A stretch of 64,000 nucleotides of DNA from Bacteroidales bacterium (GTDB lineage: Bacteria > Bacteroidota > Bacteroidia > Bacteroidales > UBA932), in the NCBI GenBank assembly GCA_017550655.1, contig JAFZOK010000013.1:682001-746000 (forward strand), given 5' to 3'. Under the pieces are notes generated by a model. The model was not told the DNA's origin, searched no databases, and saw only the letters and a program-made list of their open reading frames with translations. The position numbers were made by a program, and so were the translations under genes. The number at the start of each line of letters is the position of its first letter. Position 1 is the first letter of the stretch. Shown one piece after another: positions 11,416-57,259 of this stretch.

Positions 11416-11446
11416 TTTGATTATTCGCATTATATTAATAAATTTG
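11416..11446 (+). promoter_or_regulatory. full Bacteroidetes promoter for the small-peptide/LRR unit
   Basis: TTTG at 11416-11419 and TAAATTTG at 11439-11446 are separated by 19 bases, a close match to the Bacteroidetes housekeeping promoter. The expected transcript would carry the 39-codon gene at 11490 and then the leucine-rich-repeat lipoprotein at 11642. Confidence 0.7.
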
Positions 11447-11489
11447 AAAACTATCAAAATACAATATCTTAATCAAATAACTATATGCT

Positions 11490-11609: not shown

Positions 11610-11641
11610 AATTGAAGTTTGTAATTTAAAATGGTAGAGTT

Positions 11642-44075: not shown

Positions 44076-45452
44076 TTACTTCTTGATGAATTCTACGCGG
44101 CGGTTCTTTGCCCTGCCTGCTTCTGTGGAGTTGTCTGCAACTGGCTCGTGGCTTCCCTTGCCCACAGCCCTGAGGTTGAATGAATCGACTCCCATTCCCT
44201 CAAGTGCCTTGACAACGGCTTCTGCTCTCTGCTGAGAAAGCGGATCGTTCACCTTGTCAGAGCCCTGGTTGTCGCAGTGTCCCTGAACTTCGAACCTTAC
44301 GTTAGGGTTCTTCTTCATATAGTCAGCCACCTTCTTGATTTCCTCCATACTCTCTGGCTTTAGATCTGCCTTTCCGGAAACGAACAGAATGTTGTTTGTA
44401 ACAAATTTTCCGCTCTCAGCGATGGCCTTTGAAACAGCATCCATATCTGTTACAGTCTGATCATAGAGATCCATAGCGCCTTTGGCATAGCGGAAGTTTG
44501 TTACATAATTATTGTTGCCGTTGAATCCGCCCCATTCTGCCTGATGGATTATCATACGCACAGCTGGTCTGCAATTAGGGATGTTAATAACACGCTTGTT
44601 GTTAACATAGATCTTTAGGGCACGCTTGTTGAAAGACAAAGCAAAGTGGCTCCAGTCATTCTTCTTCAACTCCCAAGTCTTGCCGTCGCCAGAATCTCTC
44701 CAGTCACCTGCGGTAGATAAGTAACGGCATGTTACTGATAGTTTGTCATAACTTTCGCCAATTCTAATTTCATAAGCATCATCACCCTGCGCATCCTTGA
44801 ACTCAAGCTCATAGCAGTTGCTAAGTTCTGTCTTAGGGTCGTTCATCCAGAAATCGAACTCTAAAGTGAATACATCCGGGATATAACTCTTTTGATTGGT
44901 CATCAGAGGTTCAACCCTTGACCCCGGTTCAAAATGGAGGCACTTAAAACCTTTTAAATTAGCCACATCCGCAGAGCCCTCGATTAGATCCCATTTAGAC
45001 GGGAACTCGCCCATCTGCTCAGTCTTCAAATCATCTTCAAAGAAAGCAACAGCTCCAGGCACGAAGTCGCTTTGTTCGTATTGAGCTTCAGCAGGGGTAT
45101 TGTCCGGGCGTTTGGTTCCGCACTGGTCGCAGAACTTTCCGGTGTTGCCCTTGTGGCCGCACTCTGGGTTAGGGCAAGTCCAGGTGCCAGGCTTGGCAAC
45201 TGTTACTTCCTCGCCATCGTCTTCATCCTCGTCGTCACTGTCCTTGGATTTCTTGTCCTTGTCTTTTTTCTTTCCGCTTAGAAGCCCGCCTATGCCGTCA
45301 AAAACTTTGTCAACGGCCTGGTCTACGGTCTCTTCGGTCTTGTTCTCGGTTTTGTCCTTAACTGCCTTGCCAATTTTCTTCAGGAAACCCTGTGCACTAG
45401 CTGCTGTGCAGACCAGCATCATGGCAACAAGAAGCATAATCAACTTTTTCAT
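44076..45452 (-). CDS. OmpA-family protein with zinc ribbon
   Basis: A 458-residue exported protein. Signal peptide to about ASAQ; a Lys/Asp/Glu-rich low-complexity segment (residues 30-82); a zinc-ribbon motif with Cys93, Cys98, Cys108 and Cys111; a LamG-like beta region (about 130-330, with ALKIYVNNKRVINIPN); and a C-terminal OmpA peptidoglycan-binding domain (FEVQGHCDNQGSDKVNDPLSQQRAEAVV, shown here only by its key stretch NDPLSQQRA and by the final NRRVEF). Zinc ribbons are usual in cytosolic proteins, so one after a Sec signal is odd. Bases 44500-45000, which encode the LamG-like part, are richer in A+T than the rest, hinting at a domain acquired separately. Confidence 0.85.
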   Translation of the reverse strand: MKKLIMLLVAMMLVCTAASAQGFLKKIGKAVKDKTENKTEETVDQAVDKVFDGIGGLLSGKKKDKDKKSKDSDDEDEDDGEEVTVAKPGTWTCPNPECGHKGNTGKFCDQCGTKRPDNTPAEAQYEQSDFVPGAVAFFEDDLKTEQMGEFPSKWDLIEGSADVANLKGFKCLHFEPGSRVEPLMTNQKSYIPDVFTLEFDFWMNDPKTELSNCYELEFKDAQGDDAYEIRIGESYDKLSVTCRYLSTAGDWRDSGDGKTWELKKNDWSHFALSFNKRALKIYVNNKRVINIPNCRPAVRMIIHQAEWGGFNGNNNYVTNFRYAKGAMDLYDQTVTDMDAVSKAIAESGKFVTNNILFVSGKADLKPESMEEIKKVADYMKKNPNVRFEVQGHCDNQGSDKVNDPLSQQRAEAVVKALEGMGVDSFNLRAVGKGSHEPVADNSTEAGRAKNRRVEFIKK

Positions 45453-45560: not shown

Positions 45561-45806
45561 CTAAACAGTCTTGGTTCCTATTCTATCTATCAAGAGAAGC
45601 CGGGCTTCTTCAGGTTTTTCGTAGGCGTTGCAGGATTTCAGATAAGCATCCAATTCGTAAAAATCTTCACCCCAAAGGGGCCTATGCCTCTTGAAAGCCT
45701 GCGGAGTGAAAGCAGATAATCTTCTCAGCCATAAATTTTTGCGATTAAGAGAGTGTGGGGTATTTTCTTCTAATTTTCTGTTCTTTACAAAAAGAATGAG
45801 GCGTCC
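45561..45806 (-). pseudogene. possible gene remnant without start codon
   Basis: An 82-codon stop-free frame on the minus strand without an ATG in a useful place. The translation looks protein-like in composition (LSAFTPQAFKRHRPLWGEDF, then ELDAYLKSCNAYEKPEEARL), ending IGTKTV. It begins 8 bases inside the att copy at 45814. It may be the 3' part of a gene truncated by island integration or simply a chance frame. Family unknown. Confidence 0.3.
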
Positions 45807-45813
45807 TTATAGC

Positions 45814-45835
45814 CTAGTACTCATCCTCGTTGAAG
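45814..45835. repeat. att copy 1 (left end of island)
   Basis: Contains TACTCATCCTCGTTGAAG exactly as in the intact DUF2795 gene at 57038-57059; 21 of 22 bases match that copy. On the minus strand it reads FNEDEY-stop. It marks the junction of chromosome and island. Confidence 0.8.
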
Positions 45836-45961
45836 TTGTAGTGTGTTTTGTGTATAATACACATTGTCAATATATTACCATTGTGTTCAAAAACTGGGGA
45901 TAGCTACAGGGGTAGTCTGATGTAGCTTAATTGCAACTAATTGGATTGATGAGCCCCATTT

Positions 45962-47287
45962 TTACTCTCCTTGCTCCGGAACAGGAATCCCTGCGGCGCG
46001 GAGAAATCCTTCGATTGCGTACAGAGGAAGATTCTCCATCCAGCCTTGGTCGATGTAGTTCAACATTGAGAGCCGGAGGCCTTTCAGGTTGGGATGTTCA
46101 TCAATGTATGTCTTAAGAGATTTAGCTTTGACATTTTCCTCAGCCTTAGCCTCAATGGGGACAACACGCTTTTCTGTCTGGACGGCGAAGTCTATCTCCA
46201 CTTCAGATTCGTTGGTGGAATAGTAGAAGGTGGGAATCTGGATACGGGCTAATTGCTCATTGACATAGCACTCAGTGAAGGCTCCTTTGAACTCCTTGAA
46301 GATATTGTCGCCAACCAGCATCTGGGAAGCGGGAACATCTGTCATAGCCCCGAGCAAGCCCACATCCAATGGGAAAACCTTGAATACATCGAAATCTTCG
46401 TAAAAACTGAGCGGGTATTCAATCTTGGAGACGCGATGTACTTTATAGATGAGACCGGCATCTTTGAGCCAAGTAATGGCTATTTCAAAGTCCTTGGCCC
46501 TGGCGCCTTTACGTATGGCTCCATAGATGAGCTTCTTGTTCTCTTTTGCCAGATGGGAAGGGAGAGAATCCCAAACCATTTCGATTCGTGGTACTTCCTT
46601 CTTGGGTGCGTGCTTTGAAAAGTCTTTGCGGTAGCCGGCAAGGATATCTTTATGGATCTTGCGGACGGCATTGAGCCCTTTACCGGCGATGTAACCGGCA
46701 ACGGCTTCGGGCATACCGCCTACGTAATAATACTGCCTGAGGAGGTCTATATACTTTTGACTCAAGGTGTTTACTGCGATCCAGTCACATTCCAGGAGCA
46801 ACTGCGTCAGTTTCTCGTTGCCTGTAGCGTTCAGGAATTCGTGCAGGGACATCGGGAACATCCGGACAAGTTCTACCATTCCGACTGGGAAGGACTGGTC
46901 TTCGTGGATAGAGATGCCAAGGAGAGAGCCTGCGACAGCCACATCATACTCCGGGAAGTCTTCCTTGAAGTATTTGAGGCAGCCCAGGGCTGCAGCGCTT
47001 TCCTGAATTTCATCGATGATAATAAGCGTATCCTTAGGGACGATATCCACGCCTGTATGGGCAGACAACGTACGGATGATTCTCTTGATGTCGTGATCTG
47101 GCTCAAAGATAGATTTGGCCACGGCCTCTTTATCCAAGTTGACATAGGAGACGCTTTTGTACTCCTTTGCACCGAACTCTTTGAGAATATAGGTTTTGCC
47201 AACCTGACGTGCACCATCAAGGACAAGGGGCTTATGGTCTCTACGAGACTGCCAATCAAGTAATTTTTGGTATATATCTCGTTTCAT
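45962..47287 (-). CDS. AAA ATPase with DUF4143 domain
   Basis: The 441 residues start at MKRDIYQKLLDW (ATG 47287; a longer start at 47314 is possible). Walker A is GARQVGKT at 25-32, Walker B LIIIDEIQES, then a sensor-like VAVAGSLLG. The C-terminal DUF4143 region has a nuclease-like stretch, STNESEVEIDFAVQTEKRVVPIEAKAE, with D and E-A-K placed like a PD-(D/E)xK core. Such ATPases are very common in anaerobes, often in islands; their function is unproven, with defence or toxin-like roles suggested. Two 17-base direct repeats flank its -7 box. Confidence 0.9.
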   Translation of the reverse strand: MKRDIYQKLLDWQSRRDHKPLVLDGARQVGKTYILKEFGAKEYKSVSYVNLDKEAVAKSIFEPDHDIKRIIRTLSAHTGVDIVPKDTLIIIDEIQESAAALGCLKYFKEDFPEYDVAVAGSLLGISIHEDQSFPVGMVELVRMFPMSLHEFLNATGNEKLTQLLLECDWIAVNTLSQKYIDLLRQYYYVGGMPEAVAGYIAGKGLNAVRKIHKDILAGYRKDFSKHAPKKEVPRIEMVWDSLPSHLAKENKKLIYGAIRKGARAKDFEIAITWLKDAGLIYKVHRVSKIEYPLSFYEDFDVFKVFPLDVGLLGAMTDVPASQMLVGDNIFKEFKGAFTECYVNEQLARIQIPTFYYSTNESEVEIDFAVQTEKRVVPIEAKAEENVKAKSLKTYIDEHPNLKGLRLSMLNYIDQGWMENLPLYAIEGFLRAAGIPVPEQGE

Positions 47288-47324
47288 ATCACACAAATTA
47301 TGACGAATAAACAAGTATAATCAA

Positions 47325-47374
47325 CAAAAATTCCGACGAATCTTTGCCGCAAATATACAAAAATTCCGACGAAT
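47325..47374 (-). promoter_or_regulatory. promoter of the DUF4143 ATPase between two direct repeats
   Basis: CAAAAATTCCGACGAAT occurs exactly twice, at 47325-47341 and 47358-47374, 33 bases apart (about three helical turns). Between them at 47350-47357 lies TATATTTG (minus strand), the -7 box. A protein binding both repeats would block the promoter, so autoregulation is likely. Confidence 0.65.
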
Positions 47375-47513
47375 GCCGATGCACGGAAAGAACCTTCTGA
47401 AGTGTCCCGCTTGTGGAGTCAAAAAAACACAAATCATTGCTCCCTGTCACAGGTTATTGCAAATATACACTTTTTGCGTGTAATTCTTTTTCTTTGGTTT
47501 ACAACAGATAATC

Positions 47514-47888
47514 TCAATCATCATTTGATAAGAATCTCCATTTCATACTGCTGGCCAGAATAACGTCCGAGCCATTTTGGAATTCGACTAATCCATCTGT
47601 AAAGTGTAGCTGTAAGTTCGTGATAGTCTTATCCTTGAAATCATTGGAGACGTTAATGGTATCGACTTCGGCCAGTTCTATGCACAACATGGCAAATTGC
47701 CAGAGGCCACAATCTATTGCAAGCCTCAGATAGACGATTTTACGGGATTCATAGTAATAGAATTCCATAACCATAATGTCTCTCCCAGACAGATGCCCAT
47801 CGAAAATAGCCAGAAGTTTGTCAAGACCAACCTGACTGGTGCATTTGTGCCAGCGGTTTAAAGAATTAGCGAGATATGAGACCGGCAT
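47514..47888 (-). CDS. hypothetical protein
   Basis: Not recognised. A 124-residue frame, MPVSYLANSLNRWHKCTSQ, with alpha/beta composition and no signal or membrane segment. It starts 17 bases after the PLD-like fragment on the same strand and belongs to element B. Coding potential is plausible from length and composition only; it may be a fragment like its neighbours. Confidence 0.5.
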   Translation of the reverse strand: MPVSYLANSLNRWHKCTSQVGLDKLLAIFDGHLSGRDIMVMEFYYYESRKIVYLRLAIDCGLWQFAMLCIELAEVDTINVSNDFKDKTITNLQLHFTDGLVEFQNGSDVILASSMKWRFLSNDD

Positions 47889-47905
47889 AATGTATAACGA
47901 ATTTC

Positions 47906-48304
47906 TTATGATTCTCCCAATATGTACCCCATCATCTCCGACGCAATTACCGGCGCCAGCACACGCATGACATTATCCTCCTCCTTGTGATGGCTTCCTG
48001 CCAAATCGATACTGCCAAACCAGAGTAAGGACCGGTCAATAACGGCAGCTCGGATGGGTTGTTTATCAGTTTGGACTAGTTTTATCCCCGCCTTGGTGAA
48101 GTCTTCGTCCCGAGAAGATGGCTTTCGGATAATAATACAGCACTCCACACCAAGGTATTGCAAGGCGCTCCCTTTCTCCTCTATTGCCCGGAACGGAGTA
48201 AATCGCGGAATCAAAACTCTACTGAACGACTGCCTGGACATCTGAGCCTTTGCATCAGACTTGTAACGAATCGGCCCGCACTGCATGAACACAATTGGCG
48301 TCAT
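47906..48304 (-). pseudogene. fragment with PLD-like C-terminal domain
   Basis: A 132-residue frame; the stop-free stretch extends about 18 codons upstream of the ATG at 48304 without another start. The segment IRAAVIDRSLLWFGSIDLAG followed by EEDNVMRV resembles the C-terminal PLD-nuclease core of some helicases and restriction-like proteins (HxK...D..LWxGS.N), but the His of the HxK motif is not clear. It is probably the 3' piece of a larger defence or helicase gene, joined to integrase remains at 48324. Confidence 0.45.
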
Positions 48305-48323
48305 CCCGTCCTGACGGGTGTAA

Positions 48324-48875
48324 TCAAGAAAAAGTATGAGCTTTTTGTACTTTATCTTGATTTTTTGGCGAGAAAAAGTACATTAAGGTCTCAATTATGA
48401 GTGCGCATAATGATTTGTCACGACCTCCACTAAACAAAACATGCCTTTTCACATCTCCATCAGCTTCCTCGCCTCCTCTTCTATGGTGCTTATTATGCCG
48501 CCATTCCATCCGATATTGAATAAAAGCCTCAAAGGTTTCGGGATTCAGTTTCATCAGCGTCATCGACTTGCCTCCGGTATGGAATCTCTCAAAGTCTGAA
48601 AACACTCGCAGATAACTCCGGTGGTTGTAGTAGGTCTGATAGGTGATTTGTTTCTTGAGGAACCTTGACTCCAGATATTCCAGCGCAAAATCGACAAGCG
48701 TTACCATCCTGGGGCGGTCTTCCTCTGCCACATGTGTCCCCTTAAGGATTGAACCAATGAGCGTAATCGTCAGGTTTTCAGGTTTACACTTCCCGTGTTG
48801 CTCCATAATGCCTGCCTTGAAAGCCGCCAGTTCCGCATTGATGGATAGTGACTCTTCAGTATTCCCGGTTGCCAT
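48324..48875 (-). pseudogene. degenerate tyrosine recombinase (integrase) of element B
   Basis: The frame keeps the end of the arm-binding domain (a WDSRREMATGN-like segment runs upstream of the ATG without a start codon) and a SAM-like core-binding domain up to about residue 128 (YQTYYNHRSYLRVFSDFERF, LNPETFEAFIQYRMEW). From there the translation turns to low-complexity HNKHHRRGGEE; in another frame WNGGIISTIEEEARKLMEM-stop continues, so a frameshift is likely. The catalytic domain with R-H-R-H-Y is missing. Inactive as an integrase. Confidence 0.7.
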
Positions 48876-49100
48876 TTCCCTCCGGCTGTCCCATAGGTCC
48901 GGCTCGATGGAAACTCCTGATGGAGGAGGAATACTGCCACAAATCAGCAGCTCAAAAAAGAGGGTAAAACAGTGGGCAAAAAAGAGGACAAAACAAATAG
49001 AAAAACGGCCCCAGAGCGCACTCTAAGGCCGATTTTAACAAATAACCGCCCATAAAGAGGGTAACTTTATGTCGGTCATAAATCTCTAATATTCAACGAG

Positions 49101-49122
49101 TTAGTACTCGTCCTCGTTGAAG
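49101..49122. repeat. att copy 2 (junction of the two elements)
   Basis: TACTCGTCCTCGTTGAAG, one base different from the other two copies in this core. On the minus strand it again reads FNEDEY-stop (TAA instead of TAG). It is the shared boundary of elements B and A. Confidence 0.8.
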
Positions 49123-49178
49123 AGTTTTTTATAAAAGTTAAACTATTTATTATCAGCATAATGAAGTTTTGTCAATCT

Positions 49179-49194
49179 GAAATAGACAAGGATA
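49179..49194. repeat. candidate integrase arm site, left end of element A
   Basis: GAAATAGACAAGGATA, identical over 16 bases to 56919-56934 near the right end. It lies 57 bases inside the left att copy. Confidence 0.6.
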
Positions 49195-49211
49195 AGCACC
49201 CCAAAAACAAG

Positions 49212-49240
49212 AAAAGGCAAGGAGTTTTTCCCTGCCTTTT
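49212..49240. terminator. hairpin terminator
   Basis: AAAAGGCAAGG pairs with CCCTGCCTTTT with one mismatch around a 7-base loop. It follows the minus-strand HTH gene by 19 bases and has T-rich flanks on both sides, so it may act in both directions. Confidence 0.6.
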
Positions 49241-49258
49241 CGCCTGTAAAACAAGTTC

Positions 49259-49492
49259 TTATGCAATGTCCCTACAATGTGGGTAAAAGAACCTTTCGTC
49301 ATTCAGAAAATCAATAATGTGTTGTTGCTGAATGTACTTTTTGTTGCTCCCAGGTACTTGGGAATAACTTATCCACCCGTTGTTAATCCACTTCCTAAAA
49401 GTATTGTCCTTAATATGGAGTAGCAACTTAACTTCTTCCGCGGTGAATACAGGCTTTGTCCAATCAACTTTCTTTTCATCATCTTCCTGCAT
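49259..49492 (-). CDS. excisionase-like helix-turn-helix protein
   Basis: A 77-residue protein of the HTH_17/excisionase type: FTAEEVKLLLHIKDNTFRKW as the winged HTH, then INNGWISYSQVPGSNKKYIQ as the wing and QQHIIDFLND. Bacteroidetes integrative elements usually carry such a gene, which may bend DNA for excision or act as a repressor. A -7 box at 49591-49598 would give a leader of about 95 bases. It lies close to the left end of element A, away from the integrase. Confidence 0.8.
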   Translation of the reverse strand: MQEDDEKKVDWTKPVFTAEEVKLLLHIKDNTFRKWINNGWISYSQVPGSNKKYIQQQHIIDFLNDERFFYPHCRDIA

Positions 49493-49590
49493 TTTAAGTT
49501 AATTTTTTCTCTTTATTCTTATGACGCCTTCGTGCCTCATTATTGCTTTCGCAAAGGTTTGGTATAGCACAGGTGCGCGTCAAACCTACA

Positions 49591-49598
49591 CAAATATA
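49591..49598 (-). promoter_or_regulatory. -7 box of the HTH gene
   Basis: TATATTTG on the minus strand, about 100 bases before the HTH start at 49492. The -33 element is not clear. Confidence 0.45.
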
Positions 49599-49664
49599 CA
49601 AAAAATTTCGGAGAAAGTCAATGGAATTGCCGATGGCGGTATCTTGTCCGCCCCTCCAAATTTT

Positions 49665-49811
49665 GATAATCCTGCGATTGTACCATAATTTTTGGGATAA
49701 TCTCGGAATTTTGGGATAATCCTGTGATTTGTCCGCCCTGTTCGGAAAATGTTTTATTGTACAATCTCGGAATTGTACCATGAATTTGGGCGAATCTTGG
49801 AATTGTACCAT
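49665..49811. repeat. five imperfect repeats of an AATC-N4-GATT/ATTGTACCAT unit
   Basis: Units start at 49665, 49695, 49714, 49759 and 49790. Consensus is close to RATAATCYYGSRATTGTACC. The 49759-49778 unit is a full palindrome, GTACAAT-CTCGGA-ATTGTAC. Spacing is irregular (20-45 bases). TTGTCCGCC blocks flank the cluster on both sides in opposite orientation. It could be operators, iterons or a palindromic mobile repeat. Confidence 0.75.
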
Positions 49812-49919
49812 CAAGCGGACAAAGGCGGACAATGTGCCACTTTTACCCCGCTGAGGTGGTATCTGAAACCTCAGCGACGGGCTAAAAAACTATCGTGTTG
49901 ATTAAGTGCGATTTGGATA

Positions 49920-49966
49920 TTTCACTTCTGCGATTGGTGAAACACCTAAAAAAAACGTATCTTTAC
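49920..49966 (+). promoter_or_regulatory. promoter region of the putative restriction gene with inverted repeat
   Basis: TTTCAC-N11-GTGAAA (49920-49942) is a perfect 6-base inverted repeat placed about 16 bases before a -7-like TATCTTTA (49959-49966). The ATG is at 49988. The repeat overlaps the expected -33 site, a position suited to repression. Confidence 0.45.
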
Positions 49967-49987
49967 AACATTAAACTCAGGTGAGAG

Positions 49988-50623
49988 ATGAGTCTTCTTG
50001 TTGATTACAATTTGGCAACCAATGCCAATCACAAATCTGTCCGTATATTTGAAGGGCTGTTCAACGATTATTCTTTTTTGACACTTCCTTATAAGTGTCC
50101 ATCGGAGTATGTAGAAAAGTATTGGACTGCTTATGAGAATTATCAAAATCTCCACAATCCGAATAATTCTATAAATGGACTGATATTTGAATTTATAATT
50201 GAGACATTGTTTATTCGCGAAGGAATAACGCCATTCTATACCCAAGCGGAAATTTCTTTTGTTCCTGCTACTTGGTTTGATATGGTGCTTTATAACGAGA
50301 CGGACGATAGTATAGCCCCGTATAGTATTTCTCTTAAATCAAGTTTAAGGGAACGTTGGAAACAGGCGGATTTGGAAGCGGCTTTCTTAAAGAATGTTCA
50401 TCGTAAGTCAAAATGCTATCTGCTAACCATTAATCGGGAAGAAGCGGCATCCATCAACAACAAAATTCAAAGAGGAGATGCGATAGGTTTAGATGCCGTA
50501 GTTTATTGCTTGTCAGAAGAATTGAATAGTTTTATCAAAAAGATAAAGAAAGTTCGGTTTTCTGAAAGCCTACCTGATATTAAGGTGGTAAAGAGCGGTG
50601 CTTTTATTAATCCGCAAGAATAA
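49988..50623 (+). CDS. putative type II restriction endonuclease
   Basis: A 211-residue protein next to a cytosine-5 methylase and Vsr. A nuclease-like core is visible: an acidic residue in FEFIIETLFIREG, Asp in TWFDMVLYNE, then SISLKSSLRERWKQADLEAA, where SLK takes the place of the ExK of PD-(D/E)xK enzymes. The following LKNVHRKSKCYLLTIN fits the next core strand. I recall similar SLKTSLRER segments in type II enzymes but cannot name the specificity. Its 3' end overlaps the convergent vsr gene by 17 bases. It is AT-rich like the rest of the cassette. Confidence 0.7.
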   Translation: MSLLVDYNLATNANHKSVRIFEGLFNDYSFLTLPYKCPSEYVEKYWTAYENYQNLHNPNNSINGLIFEFIIETLFIREGITPFYTQAEISFVPATWFDMVLYNETDDSIAPYSISLKSSLRERWKQADLEAAFLKNVHRKSKCYLLTINREEAASINNKIQRGDAIGLDAVVYCLSEELNSFIKKIKKVRFSESLPDIKVVKSGAFINPQE

Positions 50624-51029
50624 TCTTTATTATTTTGCTAATGGTGCTTTCAAAGACTGATTTTTTAAGTTCGCATTCCCATACTACAACCGTTTTCCAT
50701 CCGTCTCGTTCAAGACTATTGGTAATATAAGCATCTCGTTTGCGATTCTTGTCAATTTTATCACGCCAAAAGTCTGTATTTGTCTCGGGGAGTTTTGCTT
50801 TCTTGCAATTCTCGTGTCCGTGCCAAAAACATCCATTGACGAAAATAACAACATTGTATTTTGGTAATACTATATCAGGACACCCGCAAAGATTACTGAC
50901 ATTGATACGATACCGAAATCCTTGCTTAAAAAGAGCCTTTCTTACAAGGATTTCAGGTTTTGTGCCTTTACTCTTAATATGAGACATACACCTATGTCTC
51001 TGTTCTTGGGTAAATCTATCTGCCATCAA
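50607..51029 (-). CDS. vsr: very short patch repair endonuclease Vsr
   Basis: Nicks 5' of T in T:G mismatches that arise when 5-methylcytosine is deaminated. The 140 residues show the family core: RHRCMSHIKSKGTKPEILVR, FRYRINVSNLCGCPDIVLPK (catalytic Asp in PDI) and FVNGCFWHGHENC with the zinc and active-site His and Cys residues, ending DGWKTVVVWECEL. It lies 18 bases downstream of the methylase gene, its natural partner. The second Met (51026) is an equally good start. Confidence 0.97.
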   Translation of the reverse strand: MMADRFTQEQRHRCMSHIKSKGTKPEILVRKALFKQGFRYRINVSNLCGCPDIVLPKYNVVIFVNGCFWHGHENCKKAKLPETNTDFWRDKIDKNRKRDAYITNSLERDGWKTVVVWECELKKSVFESTISKIIKIILAD

Positions 51030-51047
51030 TAATGAGGAACCTTGCCT

Positions 51048-52055
51048 CTACTGCTTACCAATCAAAACTGATTTTATATTCTTTGCGATAGCCTCAATGA
51101 CATTTATGCTAACACTATTTCCAAATTGTTTGTAAAGGTGAACATCCGCTAACGGCAAAACGAAGGTATCAGGAAAACCCTGCAACCGAGCCCATTCTCT
51201 TGGTGTCATTTTACGAATGCTCTCATTGTTAATTTCTCCCTTTATATGTGTACTTGGTTTCATAGAGTGCGGACGCTCATCTTTTATAAGATTACCCTCT
51301 CGCCCCATTCCGCCGCAAACGATAGTCCCTGCTATTCCATCTAAATCTCTAACAACGTATCCGAATCCATGTCCTTTTGCTTCGTGTCTCGCTTTATGTG
51401 CTTTTAATGTATTCAGATAAACATTGCTCAAATAGTATTTTGAATCAATAGGTGCTTCTTCAAGAATATCCCTTATACATACGTTTTTTTTGTTGCCCTC
51501 TGGAAACAAAAATTCTGTTGGGGCAATGTCATTTCTAAAACATACAATATAAATTCTTTCTCTATTTTGAGGAACGCCGAAATCCTTGCTGTTAAGTATC
51601 TTTGAAAATACCTTATATCCAAGTTTTTCAAAAGTATCCACAATTACCTTAAATGTCCTTCCCTTATCGTGAATTGTTAAGCCTTTTACGTTTTCGCAAA
51701 AAATAACTTTTGGTTTATGATAGTCGCAAATTCTTGCCACATCTAAAAATAAAGTTCCACGACACATTCCCTTATAATCATCGTTAAATCCTTGGTGTTT
51801 CCCTGCCATAGAAAATGCTTGACAAGGGAAACCTGCTAAACAAATGTCAAAAGGAGGAATATCTTGTTCTTTAATTTGGGTAATATCACCTGCTATGTCA
51901 AAATCATCCTTAAAATTTGCCTTGTATGTAAGTTGGGCATACTTGTCCCATTCGCTTACAAAAATGGTTTTAACACTCTTTCCAAAAGCATTGTCAAAAC
52001 CTAATCTAATCCCGCCGATACCCGCAAATAAATCTATTGTTGTAAAATGTTTCAT
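51048..52055 (-). CDS. DNA (cytosine-5-)-methyltransferase
   Basis: A 335-residue type II methylase. Motif I is DLFAGIGG (8-15), motif IV GFPCQAFS with catalytic Cys78, motif VI FCENVKGL, motif VIII QNRERIYIV, motif IX within TPREWARLQGFPD and motif X QFGNSVS. The target-recognition region lies between VIII and IX. I use ATG 52055 because a -7 box ends about 19 bases upstream; the frame from 52076 begins before the predicted transcript start. With Vsr and the adjacent putative nuclease it forms a restriction-modification cassette. Confidence 0.97.
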   Translation of the reverse strand: MKHFTTIDLFAGIGGIRLGFDNAFGKSVKTIFVSEWDKYAQLTYKANFKDDFDIAGDITQIKEQDIPPFDICLAGFPCQAFSMAGKHQGFNDDYKGMCRGTLFLDVARICDYHKPKVIFCENVKGLTIHDKGRTFKVIVDTFEKLGYKVFSKILNSKDFGVPQNRERIYIVCFRNDIAPTEFLFPEGNKKNVCIRDILEEAPIDSKYYLSNVYLNTLKAHKARHEAKGHGFGYVVRDLDGIAGTIVCGGMGREGNLIKDERPHSMKPSTHIKGEINNESIRKMTPREWARLQGFPDTFVLPLADVHLYKQFGNSVSINVIEAIAKNIKSVLIGKQ

Positions 52056-52073
52056 ATTCAAAATCACTACAAG

Positions 52074-52081
52074 CAAAAATA
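52074..52081 (-). promoter_or_regulatory. -7 box of the methylase-vsr operon
   Basis: TATTTTTG on the minus strand, 19 bases before the methylase ATG at 52055. Confidence 0.55.
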
Positions 52082-52092
52082 AGGAAAAAACT

Positions 52093-52323
52093 CTATATTG
52101 CTATTAAATCTCCTTTCAAAACCACCCTTGTTGAGCCGAGAGCCCAACGCCAATTTAAGTCTTTGACAAGACACCTGTCGCTGTCCTCTCCATAGTCATC
52201 AATGACAAGCATTCGGACACTTTCATCGCCTGGGTCAATCACTTCTTTAAACCTAACATACATCCCTGTACGGATTGGTTCATCTTGTATATCGCTCATA
52301 TCCTTAAAATTGTAAATCATCAT
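52093..52323 (-). CDS. small hypothetical protein
   Basis: A 76-residue acidic protein, MSDIQDEPIRTGMYVRFKEV then IDDYGEDSDRCLVKDL. The frame begins with ATGATG overlapping the end of the recombinase gene by 20 bases; a start at 52299 would avoid the overlap. The beta-rich pattern (GMYVRF, RMLVIDDY, STRVVLKGDLIAI) suggests a small barrel. Family unknown. Tight linkage to the recombinase suggests cotranscription. Confidence 0.6.
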   Translation of the reverse strand: MMIYNFKDMSDIQDEPIRTGMYVRFKEVIDPGDESVRMLVIDDYGEDSDRCLVKDLNWRWALGSTRVVLKGDLIAI

Positions 52324-52903
52324 AAACTTCTCCGAGTTCCTGCTGGCGTAAGCCGATATATCTACGGGTAATGGACGGGGAGGTGTGGTTCATTATCTCG
52401 CTCAATTTCAGCAAGGCGAGTTCTCCACGTCCTGCATTGTTTTCCCGTTCCCATATCTGCCTTGCCCAAGTCTTTCGGAGTGTGTGGGTGCTAAAATTAG
52501 CGATTTTCAGATTATACTGCACCCTCATCCACTTAAAGTGCCTATTTATCATTTGAACGGAGGTTGTAGAGCCGAAACGATTAAGGAAACAAGGCTCATC
52601 CATTTCCGCATCCCCGATACCGAGAGCCTCAGCACAATCCTTAATGTGTCCTTGATACCCCTTATTTATTCGTATAACCCTCCTTTTTTTGGTTTTCTGT
52701 TCTGTAATGACGAATTCCTCGGCATTGTAAATCTGACGCCACGAAATGGCTAATAAATCGCCTATTCTAATTCCAAAAAAGAAACCACATCCAACAAGCA
52801 AGGAAAGGCGAAATTTGCCATCCTTGTAGAGTTTGCGAACAAGGTTCATTGCGGTTTCCCAAGGCAAGTAATCGGCGGTGGTGTATGAGTGTTTTACTGA
52901 CAT
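52304..52903 (-). CDS. catalytic-domain-only tyrosine recombinase
   Basis: A 199-residue protein consisting of just the catalytic domain. The active-site residues are all present: Arg46 (FFGIRIGDLL), Lys72/73, His140 and Arg143 (STHTLRKTWA), His173 (MNHTSPSITRR) and Tyr182. There is no arm-binding or SAM-like domain, unlike the full integrase at 55447-56820. Short recombinases like this can act as invertases or helpers. It has its own promoter region after the DUF2693-like gene. Role is open: second integrase, resolvase or DNA inversion. Confidence 0.85.
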   Translation of the reverse strand: MSVKHSYTTADYLPWETAMNLVRKLYKDGKFRLSLLVGCGFFFGIRIGDLLAISWRQIYNAEEFVITEQKTKKRRVIRINKGYQGHIKDCAEALGIGDAEMDEPCFLNRFGSTTSVQMINRHFKWMRVQYNLKIANFSTHTLRKTWARQIWERENNAGRGELALLKLSEIMNHTSPSITRRYIGLRQQELGEVYDDLQF

Positions 52904-53017
52904 ATCTGCTTGTTTTGTTTATGTTGGTTAAACTTGATACTTCTTTCTAAAAATTAATCTGTAATGTCTTAAAAGTCAATACTAATTTCATTTCTGATAG
53001 AGGTGGGATATGAGGCA

Positions 53018-53359
53018 TTAAGCCCCATACCCGATAAAACTACCAATGCGCATTGATTTCCATTCTCCGCTCTCGCAATCAATAAACGGAATCTGTCCGT
53101 AGCGGAGTTTCGGTTCTGTGCCTATACGAGACGCTGTCTTGACATTTGCAAGACTTCTCATTGTAGTACCCCAAAACTCCCTGATTGTGCCATCAACCTT
53201 CTGAAAGTAGCCATGTACGATACCTGTGCGGAGGCGATTAACCAACTCGTTGCATTTGCTCATCTGTAATGCGGCGGCAAAACCATCAACGCTTCTCATA
53301 GCGGAATACTTGGCGATTGTCATTTCCTGATTGCTCAATGTCATAATCTGTGTTCTCAT
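53018..53359 (-). CDS. small DUF2693-like protein
   Basis: I use ATG 53359 (113 residues, MRTQIMTLSNQEM); a start at 53434 lies upstream of the promoter. The stretch VHGYFQKVDGTIREFWGTTM is typical of small DUF2693-like proteins of Bacteroidetes mobile elements, in which a DGT-R-GT pattern recurs. Function unknown. It is divergent from the gene at 53507 with a regulated-looking region between. Confidence 0.6.
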   Translation of the reverse strand: MRTQIMTLSNQEMTIAKYSAMRSVDGFAAALQMSKCNELVNRLRTGIVHGYFQKVDGTIREFWGTTMRSLANVKTASRIGTEPKLRYGQIPFIDCESGEWKSMRIGSFIGYGA

Positions 53360-53420
53360 AACTTGATACTTTTTAGTGGTAAAAAATGTATTATCTATCT
53401 GTCTTTCTCTTTCAACACCA

Positions 53421-53498
53421 CAAAGATATGGCAAATTAGGCTAATCTGCAAATAAAATTAGGCTAACTTGCCATATAATATGTAATTTTTTACCTTTG
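53421..53498. promoter_or_regulatory. divergent promoters with paired operators
   Basis: Minus strand: TTTG (53449-53452) and TATCTTTG (53421-53428) separated by 20 bases. Plus strand: CTTG (53467-53470) and TACCTTTG (53491-53498), also 20 bases apart. AAATTAGGCTAA occurs twice, at 53433-53444 and 53455-53466, 22 bases apart. Outside them ATATGGCAA and TTGCCATAT form an inverted pair. One bound regulator could close both promoters. Confidence 0.7.
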
Positions 53499-53506
53499 CT
53501 CCCGAT

Positions 53507-53776
53507 ATGGATAATGAAAAGTTTGAGAAAAAGGTTATTCACCTGATTTTTAAGGGTAAAACACGTGCTGCCGATAAGCATTATTACTTTGGGAGCGTTG
53601 CCTGTATTTATGAACATTTCTCTGCCGAGGATATTGGTATAACTCACGGCTCATTAAGGAATTACCGCATTACCGAAGTCAAACCATACGAAAACAACCA
53701 GGTGATTATACGACAGGGCAAACTCCACACAAAACTTTTGTCCAAGCCCCGTGAGAAAAAGCCTAAAAAAGAGTAG
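53507..53776 (+). CDS. small basic hypothetical protein
   Basis: An 89-residue basic protein, MDNEKFEKKVIHLIFKGKTR. The ATG lies only about 8 bases after the -7 box, so the mRNA is nearly leaderless. SAEDIGITHGSLRNYRI could be a weak HTH-like segment. Tail is Lys/Pro-rich. No family recognised. Opposite in direction to almost all other genes of element A, which makes it a candidate regulator. Confidence 0.6.
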   Translation: MDNEKFEKKVIHLIFKGKTRAADKHYYFGSVACIYEHFSAEDIGITHGSLRNYRITEVKPYENNQVIIRQGKLHTKLLSKPREKKPKKE

Positions 53777-53782
53777 ATTAGG

Positions 53783-54718
53783 TTATTCTAACCTGTGTAG
53801 AATGTCATTCCAATAGTCTTTTTCGGTTCCCTGGGCACTTTGTTCCATTAAGTCCCGATATGGTTTCATTTTGTTCTTAATACTTGTGCCCCGCGTTGGG
53901 TAAATGCTTCTAATCTTTGCCTCAACTTTCTCCAAATCATAATCGCAATCTCGTAATACTAACGACATTGTATAAGTCCTCATATCAGAGTAATGTTGTT
54001 CGTTTCCGTCGGGCTCTCTTATAGCCGATTTTAGGAAATCAATAATTGGATTAGCGGTTGATTTCAAGACGGATAACAACTTGTTGTCTGATATCTTCAA
54101 TGATTTTCGTACTTGCTCCTTGGTGTTCAAATTTATCTCAAATCGGCACACATCATTAAACTCTCCGTCAAACCCATTTGCCGTTTTATACTTTCTATTC
54201 TTTGCTAAATTCATTTCCCGTTCTTTGTCATAAATTGTTATTCTCTTTTTCATATCCCGCGTATCCACATTCTTTTCCAAATCAAAATTCCCATTTTTGT
54301 GCTTTGTGCTTTTAAATGATTGGTAGTTGATAATGTGGCTTTTAATAAAAGGGATTAGTCTTTTGTAATCTACCCCCTTAATATCTTTTGTGTAGTCTGC
54401 TTTTACCACTTCCGCTTGCATCATTGCTTCTATATCTATCTTGCATATTCCCATAGCATTGATATTGTTGAAACATTCCGTAATCGTGTCTAACGAAATG
54501 AGTTGCGGATAATGCTTCCCTAACACTTTGCCCGTAAATTCCAATACTACTTCTCCGTTCTCAAAATCAACTTTGATTAGGATTTCATTAGGTTTGTCCT
54601 GATAATATCGGAGCGAGATAACCCTGCCTCCTTGTTCTATCATTTGAAATGCTTCGGGTTTGATAATAGTTATGGAATTTAGCCCTGCCACCAATTTTAA
54701 CTTGTCAAATGTTTGCAC
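53783..54718 (-). CDS. putative replication initiation (Rep-like) protein
   Basis: A 311-residue protein with features of rolling-circle Rep proteins of the Rep_trans / phage gene II-X type: a conserved RITIYDKEREMNLAKNRKY block, then DVCRFEINLNTKEQVRKSL. The usual catalytic Tyr cannot be fixed by eye. In integrative elements such proteins can act as replication initiators or relaxases, allowing transfer with a helper. It lies about 55 bases downstream of the NUMOD3-like gene on the same strand. Confidence 0.55.
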   Translation of the reverse strand: MQTFDKLKLVAGLNSITIIKPEAFQMIEQGGRVISLRYYQDKPNEILIKVDFENGEVVLEFTGKVLGKHYPQLISLDTITECFNNINAMGICKIDIEAMMQAEVVKADYTKDIKGVDYKRLIPFIKSHIINYQSFKSTKHKNGNFDLEKNVDTRDMKKRITIYDKEREMNLAKNRKYKTANGFDGEFNDVCRFEINLNTKEQVRKSLKISDNKLLSVLKSTANPIIDFLKSAIREPDGNEQHYSDMRTYTMSLVLRDCDYDLEKVEAKIRSIYPTRGTSIKNKMKPYRDLMEQSAQGTEKDYWNDILHRLE

Positions 54719-54773
54719 TCTTATCTATCTTTCTGCATTATTTTTTTAACCAACTTCCTCTTGATAAGTGGTG

Positions 54774-54947
54774 TTATAGTGTCTCTCCTGAAATAGGTTT
54801 GTTCGGCACATCCTTCCAATAATCCAACATCCCTTGGGAGATATGCTGCTTGTGGGTTTCGGATTTCTTTTTGCCTTTGTTTGCTTGGGAGATTTTTTGC
54901 TTTGTCTCTGGCTCCAACTCCCGAAATTGTCTTTTGTAGTCGCTCAT
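54774..54947 (-). CDS. 57-residue NUMOD3-like protein
   Basis: MSDYKRQFRELEPETKQKIS followed by QANKGKKKSETHKQHISQGM is the NUMOD3 pattern (S-E-T-K-x-K-I-S repeats), a DNA-contacting helix-loop motif normally found in homing endonucleases. Here no nuclease domain is attached. The longer open frame upstream to 55283 has AT-rich, unlikely coding content. A start at 54977 (MNNIKNTLI) is possible. It might aid the Rep-like protein or integrase in DNA binding. Confidence 0.55.
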   Translation of the reverse strand: MSDYKRQFRELEPETKQKISQANKGKKKSETHKQHISQGMLDYWKDVPNKPISGETL

Positions 54948-54977
54948 AATCAATGTGTTTTTAATGTTATTCATAAA

Positions 54978-55446
54978 TAAATAGTACGATAAGTAGAAAA
55001 AGTTAGTATAGTAGAAACTTTTTTTTCGTTTTTTAAAAGAACATTCTCGGAAAGCACAGAGAATGAGCATACTGCACTTTCTAAATTTTTGAGTTCGGAG
55101 GGGGACAACGCCAAATTTGTTTCTCGGTAAGATGCCCGACAGTTCCCTCGTACTAAAACTATTACTATTGGGGCTTTGAAATAAGGCGGGATAGAAATGT
55201 AAGTTATTGAAAATAAGAAGGTAGGGAGGGCGGGAGGTGCTATTTTCTAAATTATAGGAGTTTGAGGCACAAATTTTTCGCAAGCATCTGATTAAAAGCC
55301 GTTTTTAGCCTCTTCGCGGAGGTAAATAAATAAGCAATAATCAAATCTTTGTAAGGTGCTTGTTTATAGGAACTTAGCCATATCTTATGAGAAAACGCCC
55401 TTTTTGGCAGGATATTACCCCTTGGCTCTCGGAGATTTAACTATGG
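54978..55446. other. 469-base non-coding stretch in element A
   Basis: AT-rich with G-rich patches near 55095 and 55220 (GGAGGGGGAC, GGTAGGGAGGGCGGGAGG) and a 9-base inverted pair TTAGCCATA (55374-55382) / TATGGCTAA (55442-55450) at the end of the integrase gene. It lies next to the Rep-like and NUMOD3-like genes, so an origin of replication or transfer is possible; nothing decisive is seen. Confidence 0.4.
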
Positions 55447-56820
55447 CTAAATTTCTTGAAAATCAGGCAAAAAAGAGTAGTTGAGTTTGGATAGTTCTTT
55501 TTCAAGAGAGGTTTGTGTATATTCCGAATATACTTGCTCGGTAATATCGGTAGAACTATGCCCAAGCATACGACTAACGACAGAAAGGCTCATACCATCG
55601 TTGAGAGCACGAACGGCAAATGAGTGCCGAGCAAGGTGAAAATGGAGTTTGAAAGGTAGCCCCATCTTCTCCCCGACAACATCTAATGCTTGGTTAATCT
55701 TCGCATTGCACGAGTTGCGTGTACGGTACAAGAGTTCCTGGTCGTTTATGTCAAAATCATCACTGACTAAATCAAAAACAAACTTCTTCCTGCGGTTCTT
55801 TGCCTTCCATCTTTCAAGAATTTTGATGGCGGCATTGCTGAGGGGTATGGTATGGCGGGGCTTATTACCTTTGGCGGTTTTGATTAGGATTTTCTTCAAT
55901 TCTTTCTTCTCAAAATTGATATTGCTCCACATTAGGGTAAGGGTATCCACAAGCCTCAGCCCGCCCGCGTGAAATGCAAACAAGAACATTTCAATATACT
56001 CTTTTCTTCGTGGCTCGGTGTCTTTGTTGTAAAACTCTACTAACTTGTTTAACTGCTCTTTGGTTAAGTCCTTTCCGTCGTAGATTTCATTGTCAAGGTT
56101 CGGGGTTTCCTCTACCCTACAATCCTTGATTTGGGCATACACGCTGCCTTCTATCAGTCCTTCATCTTTTGCCCGCTCGCAAGCGTTTATAATTGGTGTC
56201 AAGGCGTGGTTGATAGTGGCATCGGAGTTATTCTTATCCCGTCGATATTGGATGTAATCATCTATGAGAGCCAACGATATATCCCCAAGGTACAATGCGG
56301 AATTGTTGTTGTATGTTCCTTTCTTCTTTGCTTTTAGGAACTGTTCAAATCCGTTCATACAACTTATGCCATTCTCATAGCGGCTCTTGCCGATTTTGTT
56401 GCGTGTGTATTTGGATTTGAGATTGTCAAGAACATACTGAACAAAATCCTTACCTCCATCCTTCCTTGTCAGTGGTTTGTCGTTGAGGATACCCTTGATT
56501 ACGCCCAATGTCATTTGGTGGGGGTGCTTCTGACTATATTCTTGGAGGCAGGTATCGTAATGGCTAAGTTTTCCGTGCAGGAGGTTATTTTGCCGTTGGG
56601 CATCTCTCCCATAGGAGGCTCGGAGTTCTCCCTTGCCCGAGGAACCCTTCTCGTTCCAATCATCTACCCTTACCCTTATACCCGTATCCTTGCGGATTGG
56701 AGCGGCATCAAGCCAAGTGTATTCGTAGTAGAGGGTGTATGCCTTATTCTTATCGTAGCCGTCTTTGGGATACTTTAACCTTAATTTTCCTGTGGGATAT
56801 TCCCGCCTGTGCCTACCCAT
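55447..56820 (-). CDS. tyrosine recombinase (integrase) of element A
   Basis: A full-length 457-residue integrase: N-terminal arm-binding domain (1-70, ending DTGIRVRVDDWNEKG), SAM-like core-binding domain (120-235), catalytic domain with Arg289 (HAGGLRLVDTLTL), Lys317, His395 and Arg398 (FHLARHSFA), His421 (LGHSSTDITE) and Tyr431. All catalytic residues are intact, so it should be active. Its start is 218 bases from the att copy in the DUF2795 gene. Candidate arm sites overlap and lie upstream of its promoter, which suggests self-repression. Confidence 0.97.
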   Translation of the reverse strand: MGRHRREYPTGKLRLKYPKDGYDKNKAYTLYYEYTWLDAAPIRKDTGIRVRVDDWNEKGSSGKGELRASYGRDAQRQNNLLHGKLSHYDTCLQEYSQKHPHQMTLGVIKGILNDKPLTRKDGGKDFVQYVLDNLKSKYTRNKIGKSRYENGISCMNGFEQFLKAKKKGTYNNNSALYLGDISLALIDDYIQYRRDKNNSDATINHALTPIINACERAKDEGLIEGSVYAQIKDCRVEETPNLDNEIYDGKDLTKEQLNKLVEFYNKDTEPRRKEYIEMFLFAFHAGGLRLVDTLTLMWSNINFEKKELKKILIKTAKGNKPRHTIPLSNAAIKILERWKAKNRRKKFVFDLVSDDFDINDQELLYRTRNSCNAKINQALDVVGEKMGLPFKLHFHLARHSFAVRALNDGMSLSVVSRMLGHSSTDITEQVYSEYTQTSLEKELSKLNYSFLPDFQEI

Positions 56821-56854
56821 TGTATGTGTGTTTTAATATGGACGAGGATTTTCA

Positions 56855-56862
56855 CAAAGGTA
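56855..56862 (-). promoter_or_regulatory. -7 box of the integrase gene
   Basis: TACCTTTG on the minus strand, 35 bases before the integrase ATG. A candidate arm site begins two bases upstream (56864), between the -7 and -33 regions. Confidence 0.55.
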
Positions 56863-56863
56863 A

Positions 56864-56973
56864 GAAAATAGACAAGGAAATCGCTCCTCAAAAAGCAAAA
56901 TGTGCCACAGGGGTATCGGAAATAGACAAGGATATGTGCCACTTTTTTGAGCAAAAAGAATGGGACAAGGAAA
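56864..56973. repeat. three candidate integrase arm sites, right end of element A
   Basis: GAAAATAGACAAGGAAA (56864-56880), GAAATAGACAAGGATA (56919-56934) and ATGGGACAAGGAAA (56960-56973) share the core GACAAGG. All lie in the same orientation in the 218 bases between integrase start and att. The middle one equals the site at 49179-49194. Confidence 0.65.
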
Positions 56974-57037
56974 TTACTCCTTATCCCACTCTCTTAATTT
57001 TCAGTACAGTAGAATTTTTCGCGCGGCTCCGAAACGC

Positions 57038-57059
57038 CTAATACTCATCCTCGTTGAAG
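57038..57059. repeat. att copy 3 (right end, within DUF2795 gene)
   Basis: Contains TACTCATCCTCGTTGAAG; forms the last seven codons (FNEDEY plus stop) of the DUF2795 gene. This is the reconstituted gene end expected after integration. Confidence 0.8.
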
Positions 57060-57259
57060 AAAAAATCTTCCTTGCTCGGATAGTCAGGCCAAAGGTCTTC
57101 AATGTTGTCGAATACCTCTTCCTCGTCTTCAATGTCGTTGAGGTTCTCTATAACCTCGTCTGGAGCGCCGGAACGCATCGCATAGTCTAACAGCTCGCTT
57201 TTTGTGGCTGGGAATGGGGCATCTTCCAGTTTTGATGCTAACTCTAAAGTCCAGTACAT
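57038..57259 (-). CDS. DUF2795 family protein, integration target
   Basis: A 73-residue acidic protein, MYWTLELASKLEDAPFPATK then SELLDYAMRSGAPDEVIENL, ending FFFNEDEY. This matches the DUF2795 family common in Bacteroidetes, a short helical protein of unknown function. The gene is intact although the island begins at its 3' end; the element supplies identical terminal codons. It has a -7 box at 57285-57292. Confidence 0.9.
   Translation of the reverse strand: MYWTLELASKLEDAPFPATKSELLDYAMRSGAPDEVIENLNDIEDEEEVFDNIEDLWPDYPSKEDFFFNEDEY

What the first reader, a model, noticed from the sequence alone, without database searches (positions are those of the whole stretch)
45814..57059. Two tandem integrative elements at the 3' end of a DUF2795 gene, marked by three att copies
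An 18-22 base sequence encoding FNEDEY-stop occurs at 45814, 49101 and 57038. Only the last belongs to a complete gene. In both intervals an integrase gene begins about 220 bases inside the right-hand copy (218 and 226). Tyrosine integrases using the 3' end of a gene as attB are well known, but a DUF2795 gene as target is not one I have seen described. The pattern implies repeated use of the same site.
Basis: partly seen in the sequence, partly recalled or inferred. Interest (0 to 1): 0.75.

Follow-up and report, generated by a model that had tools for sequence, protein, structure and literature searches.

The report
Gene-end landing site for mobile DNA
A small mobile DNA element has inserted itself, by its own integrase, exactly at the 3' end of a short conserved gene, next to the decayed remains of an earlier one, and related integrases use this same gene end in many gut bacteria of the order Bacteroidales.

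Summary
A 20-22 bp sequence encoding FNEDEY-stop lies at 45814, 49101 and 57038 (0.02 copies expected by chance); only the last completes a gene (DUF2795). The right-hand interval (7937 bp) is a complete-looking element: the near-identical genome G014 lacks exactly these bases, and SNPs place the exchange in or beside a 5-bp stretch (GAGTA). G015 carries a relative of it alone (integrase 94%, arm-type repeats at both ends) with a different restriction-modification cassette. The left-hand interval is a relic: its integrase has lost the catalytic domain; a full-length relative sits at the same gene in another genus. Beyond the genus, 73 of 80 named integrase relatives lie just after a DUF2795 gene (194-277 bp in 72). 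Of the other 7, three have a bare att core, two are cut by contig ends, one by a scaffold gap, one apparently by another insertion. The mechanism (tyrosine integrase at a gene 3' end, tandem accretion) is known. The target looks new: of the papers searchable here only two hold 'DUF2795', neither on mobile DNA by title and opening of abstract. Excision and transfer are inferred.

The parts
57038..57259 (-). DUF2795 gene (73 aa), the target; its 3' end is the attachment site
   Evidence: PF11387 E 2e-17; found in 36 of 39 genomes searched in the genus, own included
57039..57058 (-). att core copy C (gene-proximal end of element 2; completes the gene)
49102..49121 (-). att core copy B (junction between element 2 and the element 1 relic)
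   Evidence: its flank sits at the gene end in G014
45815..45834 (-). att core copy A (far end of the element 1 relic)
   Evidence: same junction in G014
49102..57038 (.). element 2: 7937-bp site-specific insertion
   Evidence: absent from G014, matching blocks overlap by 22 bp; relative alone at the site in G015
55447..56820 (-). tyrosine integrase INT (457 aa) of element 2
   Evidence: Phage_integrase 6e-24 and Phage_int_SAM_5 5e-08; invariant columns R289, H395, R398, H421 and Y431 fit the catalytic set recalled for this family
56865..56880 (+). arm-type repeat, copy 1, between core C and INT
   Evidence: counterpart with 2 mismatches in G015
56919..56934 (+). arm-type repeat, copy 2
   Evidence: counterpart with 1 mismatch in G015
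56958..56973 (+). degenerate arm-type repeat (3 mismatches), uncertain
49179..49194 (+). arm-type repeat at the other end of element 2
   Evidence: same orientation; counterpart with 2 mismatches in G015
49259..49492 (-). small HTH protein, candidate excisionase
   Evidence: HTH_17 1.1e-4, below Pfam's cut-off; weak PHROG excisionase match E 0.013; 60% identical in G015
49988..50623 (+). candidate restriction endonuclease (211 aa)
   Evidence: weak only: RE_BsaWI E 0.0076, below cut-off; PADLOC REase_II 7e-4
50607..51029 (-). Vsr mismatch endonuclease
   Evidence: TIGR00632 2.1e-43, over cut-off
51048..52076 (-). C5-cytosine DNA methyltransferase
   Evidence: PF00145 2.6e-96
52304..52903 (-). 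second, short tyrosine recombinase INT2 (199 aa)
   Evidence: PF00589 8.9e-15; 91% identical in G015
53018..53434 (-). WYL_2-domain protein of the backbone
   Evidence: PF10902 1.9e-13
53507..53776 (+). small backbone protein, phrog_10608
   Evidence: 8.4e-20
53783..54718 (-). REP, probable rolling-circle-type initiator (311 aa)
   Evidence: of 18 aligned members 6 match Phage_CRI (best 6.3e-05) and 5 Rep_trans (best 4.1e-04); the window protein itself has no Pfam match at E 0.1; model pLDDT 89.5; fold comparison could not be run
54774..55283 (-). small backbone protein with homing-endonuclease-associated motif; true start probably further in
   Evidence: phrog_314 2.1e-05; NUMOD3 in a homologue, 1.6e-04
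45835..49101 (.). element 1 relic between copies A and B
   Evidence: present alone at the gene in G014, where the cores are 2491 bases apart against 3287 here
48324..48875 (-). truncated integrase of element 1 (183 aa, N-terminal part only)
   Evidence: SAM_5 1.8e-4, no catalytic domain; first 129 aa 92% identical to an integrase at the same gene in G333, there 443 aa
45962..47314 (-). AAA_14/DUF4143 ATPase, cargo of element 1
   Evidence: PF13635 4.4e-32, PF13173 3.6e-26; PADLOC candidate PDC-S01 3.5e-171
44076..45452 (-). OmpA-family gene, chromosomal neighbour beyond the islands
   Evidence: PF00691 6.5e-23; an OmpA-family gene follows DUF2795 directly in five congeners

Best explanation
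The last 20 or so bases of a DUF2795 gene are the chromosomal attachment site (attB) of a group of tyrosine integrases found, in the searches made, almost only in Bacteroidales records. Element 2 (7937 bp) is an integrated element. Its 457-aa integrase, probably binding arm-type repeats near both ends, recombined the element's copy of the gene end with the chromosomal copy, so the gene stays intact (insertion and intact gene are shown by sequence comparison; the enzymology is inferred). Strand exchange took place in or next to the 5-bp GAGTA of the core (inferred from two SNPs). Element 1 arrived earlier by the same route, lost the catalytic part of its integrase, and kept both att ends. Element 2 then entered the gene-proximal att site of element 1, giving the order gene - element 2 - element 1 - OmpA (G014 shows the intermediate state). 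Cargo is exchangeable, here and in G015 restriction-modification genes. Excision and helper-driven transfer of element 2 are inferred, not shown; no canonical relaxase was recognised in it.
For: Exact 7937-bp difference with a 22-bp overlap against G014; SNP-mapped exchange; relative alone at the site in G015 with INT 94% identical and a different methyltransferase plus NgoBV-type endonuclease; arm-type repeats near both ends with counterparts in G015; relative of the element 1 integrase, full length, at the same gene in another genus; 29 of 30 family-level loci (own included) and 9 of 11 order-level loci beside DUF2795; 73 of 80 named loci, gap 194-277 bp in 72; two or more same-strand cores on one contig in 14 of 20 further genomes, reversed control 0; contig ends within 1.5 kb on the 3' side of the gene in 8 of 34 congeners against 1 of 34 on the 5' side; identical or nearly identical integrases in different families.
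Against: No circle, excision or transfer was observed. Mob_Pre and DUF3987, found among ORFs of relatives, were not found among the 11 element 2 ORFs sent to Pfam. The crossover interval rests on two SNPs between two assemblies. Ends of most relatives could not be delimited: 10 of 124 stretches (8 distinct sites) show a second core within the DNA held. In the genus most sites carry no relative of these elements: BLAST hits to INT in 3 of 34 fetched stretches. The integrase tree was sampled by similarity, so its clean split is partly built in.
Confidence: 0.93

Rival explanations
1. The three copies are an ordinary dispersed short repeat that happens to lie near integrases.
For: The unit is short (20-22 bp).
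Against: 3 copies in the own genome, all here; 0-2 in each of the other 38 congeners (0 in 7 of them), mostly at the DUF2795 gene end; reversed control 0. In 20 other genomes 19 have it, with 1-4 copies, and 14 have two or more same-strand copies on one contig.
Confidence: 0.01
2. The whole A-C interval (11.2 kb) arrived as one composite element, and the inner core is a by-product of internal rearrangement.
For: Cores A and C could still recombine and move both parts together; transfer of such composites is known (PMC5704250, passages).
Against: G014 carries only A-B at the gene and G015 only a B-C relative. INT and the integrase of G333, which is the relative of element 1's, lie in different subclades.
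Confidence: 0.05
3. Element 2 is a prophage or a phage satellite rather than a mobilizable or integrative element.
For: It carries a replication-initiator-like protein and small proteins that match PHROG families; the small NUMOD-like ORF has one weak tail-protein match, E 0.08.
Against: No structural or packaging family among the 11 element 2 ORFs sent to Pfam or the 8 sent to PHROGs, that weak match apart; the 112-aa ORF at 49494-49832 was sent to neither. The pattern-based scans of viral contigs confirmed no relative of INT or REP. In phage records INT matches 33 records, the 5 shown at 24.7-28.8% identity.
Confidence: 0.07
4. The tandem is an assembly or binning artefact of a draft genome.
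For: The genome is a 42-contig, 88%-complete assembly; relatives often break near this site (scaffold gap in L152).
Against: Element 1 junctions are the same in the independent G014 assembly and the ends of element 2 resemble those of G015. The window lies inside a 781-kb contig.
Confidence: 0.03

Closest known systems
IME with tyrosine integrase using the 3' end of a housekeeping gene, and CIME-IME accretion (review PMC5704250, passages read)
   Same: att direct repeat restores the gene; decayed element with retained att ends; newer element entered at the att site that holds the gene end; type II RM systems in IMEs are mentioned there
   Different: Target is a DUF2795 gene; no canonical relaxase recognised in element 2, whereas that review calls all the few Bacteroidetes IMEs it knew canonical
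SGI1 of Salmonella at the thdF 3' end (PMC2297512, passages read)
   Same: 18-bp site at the 3' end of a protein gene; tandem arrays
   Different: Different host phylum and target; SGI1 arrays are copies of one element, here an element plus a different relic
NBU1-type Bacteroides mobilizable elements (named in PMC5704250; gene layout recalled)
   Same: Bacteroidales elements; some relatives at this site carry a relaxase and a DUF3987 (primase-like, label recalled) gene
   Different: NBU1 uses a tRNA gene end (recalled) and a MobP relaxase; relatives here carry Mob_Pre (MobV-type, label recalled)
Rep-type elements of the same bacterial family with serine recombinases (L276-L290)
   Same: REP, and in part phrog_10608, WYL_2 and the small NUMOD-like gene
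   Different: There serine recombinases in 13 of 15 contexts, a large and a small one in 10; here two tyrosine recombinases

Membership tests
Site-specific integrative element using a gene 3' end | Direct repeat at both ends, one copy completing the target gene | tested here: met
Site-specific integrative element using a gene 3' end | Precise empty site in a close relative | tested here: met
   G014 for element 2; for element 1 only looser empties in five congeners
Site-specific integrative element using a gene 3' end | Own integrase next to one end, with arm-type repeats | tested here: met
   binding itself untested
Site-specific integrative element using a gene 3' end | Excision as a circle | not testable with these tools
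   no reads or bench data
IME (integrative and mobilizable element), canonical | Own canonical relaxase | tested here: not met
   no relaxase family among the 11 element 2 ORFs sent to Pfam; among ORFs of relatives 7 of 120 match Mob_Pre
IME with non-canonical, Rep-type relaxase | RCR-initiator-like protein acting as relaxase on an oriT | tested here: inconclusive
   REP family resembles Phage_CRI/Rep_trans weakly; activity untested; fold search unavailable
CIME (decayed element with both att ends), for element 1 | att ends kept, integration and transfer genes lost | tested here: met
   integrase truncated to 183 aa, no transfer family among its 4 ORFs sent to Pfam
Prophage or satellite | Structural or packaging genes, or phage relatives | tested here: not met
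   with the gaps named under the rival

The most novel reading that the evidence does not exclude
The DUF2795 3' end is a general docking site for mobile DNA in Bacteroidales, held by one old integrase superclade. Element 2 would be the first of a Bacteroidales type that moves with a Rep-like, non-canonical relaxase: a backbone that elsewhere rides on serine recombinases has here taken over the DUF2795-specific tyrosine integrase module and uses REP for nicking and helper-driven transfer.
Probability: 0.2. Interest if true: 0.65.

Novelty: new member of a known kind. Interest (0 to 1): 0.48.

Why it matters
It defines an attachment site, usually single-copy in the genus, that is used in several Bacteroidales families, with two different restriction-modification cassettes found on related elements at this locus within one genus. 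That gives a fixed address at which to look for new defence cargo and mobilizable elements in gut Bacteroidales, a set of integrases with a known target, and a likely reason for recurrent assembly breaks after this gene. It does not change the known mechanism.

Tried and rejected
Dispersed-repeat reading rejected. Prophage reading not supported. INT in plasmids: 71 records match, the 5 shown at 23-25% identity. REP: no relative confirmed in viral contigs, none in plasmids, no convincing PDB sequence match (best E 0.2). A third, older remnant beyond copy A was considered: 69 bases including the core are 77% identical to the G015 flank, but without the core the alignment score barely beat shuffles (40 against a shuffled maximum of 37) and the comparison with the window's own copy-C flank failed (23 against 39), so it is left open. 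Rfam and tRNA scans of the window were empty. A paper search for Bacteroidales hotspots gave 65 papers, 20 listed, none on this site by title and opening of abstract; two further searches likewise.
Full report
Observation. The three copies are real and specific. In the 64-kb window the core is found 3 times with up to 3 mismatches, against 0.02 expected. In the own genome the degenerate pattern occurs 3 times, all here; in the other 38 congeners 0-2 times (0 in 7); the reversed control pattern never. Only copy C ends a DUF2795 gene. The distances of 218 and 226 bases to the integrase starts are as reported. The left integrase is a 183-aa N-terminal piece without a catalytic domain.

Empty and intermediate sites. 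G014 is nearly identical to the host here: 99.6% over a 5.75-kb block covering part of element 1 and the DNA beyond it, 98.6% over 962 bases on the gene side. It joins the DUF2795 gene end directly to the copy-B flank: 7937 bp are missing and the two matching blocks share 22 bp. G014 therefore holds element 1 alone, with cores 2491 bases apart against 3287 in the window, a difference of 796. G015 holds only a relative of element 2, with cores 7562 bases apart: INT 94%, INT2 91%, WYL_2 protein 85%, HTH protein 60% identical, but a different cassette, a C5-methyltransferase with an NgoBV-type endonuclease. Five other congeners (G003, G012, G022, G023, G027) run from the gene end to an OmpA-family gene within about 110-210 bases; in the remaining fetched stretches the next DNA differs or the contig ends.

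Crossover. G014's site reads ..GGATGAGTACTAACTC, copy C ..GGATGAGTATTAGGCG and copy B ..GGACGAGTACTAACTC. Copy C has the chromosomal left part and another right part, copy B the reverse, so exchange lies in or beside GAGTA. This rests on two SNPs and is an inference.

Arm sites. A repeat found (49175-49194 and 56915-56934) was turned into the pattern RAAATAGACAAGGAWA. It matches exactly at 49179, 56865 and 56919 and nowhere else in the window; with up to 3 mismatches there are 10 matches against 2.2 expected (0 of 100 shuffles reach 10), of which 6 lie away from the two ends. The pattern was made from these sites, so the exact matches are not independent; the counterparts at the same ends in G015, with 1-2 mismatches, are better support. 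This is the layout expected of an integrase that binds both core and arm sites; that comparison is recalled.

Breadth. Genus: the gene was found in 36 of 39 genomes, own included; 34 downstream stretches were fetched (own genome and G001 left out). BLAST hits to INT lie there in 3 of 34 (G015 94%, G029 33%, G033 52% identity) and relics in G014 and G021; unrelated integrases would not be seen by this. Family: 40 of 398 genomes, own included, have an INT match at E 1e-40 or better; of the 30 loci returned (own included), 29 hold DUF2795. The exception, G093, has its integrase at the far end of an 11-kb core-to-core interval that starts at DUF2795. Order: 11 of 393 genomes match, own included; of 11 other loci from 10 genomes, 9 hold DUF2795 and two (L123, L125) a bare core. 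Named collection: 133 relatives were found and the best 80 kept; 73 of 80 have DUF2795 upstream on the same strand, 72 with a gap of 194-277 bases and one (L130) with the gene cut by its contig end. The 7 others: L136, L171 and L182 have a bare core; L185 and L189 begin 168 and 68 bases before the integrase; L152 has a run of N ending right after the core position, and its genome's DUF2795 match stops at residue 66 of 73 on another contig; in L158 the flank shared with relatives ends about 96 bases before the integrase and other DNA follows. Record titles are Bacteroidales, Bacteroidia or lower ranks, save two MAGs labelled Saccharibacteria (L130) and Clostridiales (L147) and one record titled only 'bacterium F082' (L191); binning or naming issues are likely for the two (inference).

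In 20 genomes behind named loci the core pattern was found in 19, with 1-4 copies and reversed control 0. In 14 of 20 two or more same-strand copies share a contig; in 11 of these it is one pair 11.6-27.9 kb apart, for example 16.2 kb in Bacteroides ilei and 27.9 kb in Muribaculum sp. An289. The one genome without a match is the scaffold-gap case. Contig ends fall within 1.5 kb on the 3' side of the gene in 8 of 34 congeners against 1 of 34 on the 5' side (own genome and G001 not counted), as expected for a variable repeat-flanked site.

Integrase group. 79 loci were asked for integrase ORFs; 9 gave none. On a tree of the 70 (66 different), 50 from DUF2795-site searches and 20 other-site integrases picked from the genus list separate on one fully supported branch. 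Of the 50, I labelled 47 as DUF2795-site, among them L171 and L182 (bare core) and L087 (integrase at the far end), and three (L113, L152, L158) as no gene seen. DUF2795-site integrases score 165 or more and the 20 others 70.5 or less with a profile of INT, and none of the 20 stretches has an att core with at most 1 mismatch. The sets were chosen by similarity, so this shows a distinct group, not an unbiased test of one origin; the program also warned of long branches. Identical or nearly identical integrases in different families (Bacteroides ilei and Ca. Alistipes avicola; G341 and G484) indicate recent transfer.

Cargo and backbone. 120 of 142 ORFs of 130 aa or more, integrases mostly left out, from 18 DUF2795-site stretches were scanned (four further stretches were lost by a script slip, see Tried and rejected). 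8 match DUF3987, 7 Mob_Pre, 6 DUF6371, and several match restriction-modification families such as DpnII, EcoRV, NgoBV and type I specificity subunits (25 of 67 families shown); PADLOC lists methyltransferases and specificity subunits too (25 of 228 shown). So at least some relatives are mobilizable elements with defence cargo; L209 and L215 each have a Mob_Pre protein. No such mobilisation gene was recognised in element 2. REP has homologues in 24 of 398 family genomes, own included; 15 contexts were fetched. The small NUMOD-like, phrog_10608 and WYL_2 genes recur in part of them. 13 of 15 contexts hold members of one recombinase cluster, a large and a small member in 10; the three members sent to Pfam are serine recombinases. 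Element 2 thus looks like a Rep-type backbone joined to a DUF2795-specific tyrosine integrase (inference). Of 18 REP family members 6 match Phage_CRI and 5 Rep_trans weakly, with other weak matches that look like noise; the model is confident but could not be compared with solved folds.

Element 1. Its gene-proximal end and integrase start are 88-89% identical in DNA to an element at DUF2795 in G333, a different genus, whose integrase ORF has 443 aa. Its far end is 69% identical to that of the G021 relic over 156 bases. Element 1 is therefore best read as the relic of an independent arrival.

Known context. [quoted passage not shown] SGI1 at the thdF 3' end is a studied analogue (PMC2297512, passages). 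In the 5.39-million-paper library 'DUF2795' is in 2 papers, both proteomics by title and opening of abstract (listing only), and 'PF11387' in none. The main texts of the Integrase-On-Demand paper (PMC12884075) and the TIGER/Islander paper (PMC12424338) hold no word starting with DUF (term search only); their data tables may well list this site, and most subscription papers are not in the library. The claim of a new target is limited to that.

Noticed in passing
53018-55283, and L276-L290: REP-type backbone shared with elements of the same bacterial family that have serine recombinases (13 of 15 contexts), suggesting exchange of the integration module.
   Followed up: partly
49668-49814: Four related 22-nt repeats (spacing 31, 64, 30) between the HTH gene and the cargo of element 2; possible origin or regulatory iterons.
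   Followed up: no
49988-52076: C5-methyltransferase, Vsr and a weakly matched endonuclease candidate form a probable type II restriction-modification cassette; a different one occupies the relative in G015.
   Followed up: partly
L221 (G801) and L217/L218 (G797): Arrays of three and four att cores on one contig, spaced 2.1 to 43.9 kb, suggesting repeated accretion at one site.
   Followed up: no
G011:C34:3161, G028:C169:15560, G029:C12:529, G033:C9:86334: Extra att cores on contigs other than that of the DUF2795 gene, possibly far ends of elements split by assembly.
   Followed up: no
45766-45813: Short stretch beyond copy A that resembles the G015 flank only marginally once the core is left out; possible third, older remnant.
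   Followed up: partly
11642-13498: Low-GC stretch (39% at 11001-13000) with a 618-aa lipoprotein-like ORF that looks leucine-rich-repeat-like by eye.
   Followed up: no
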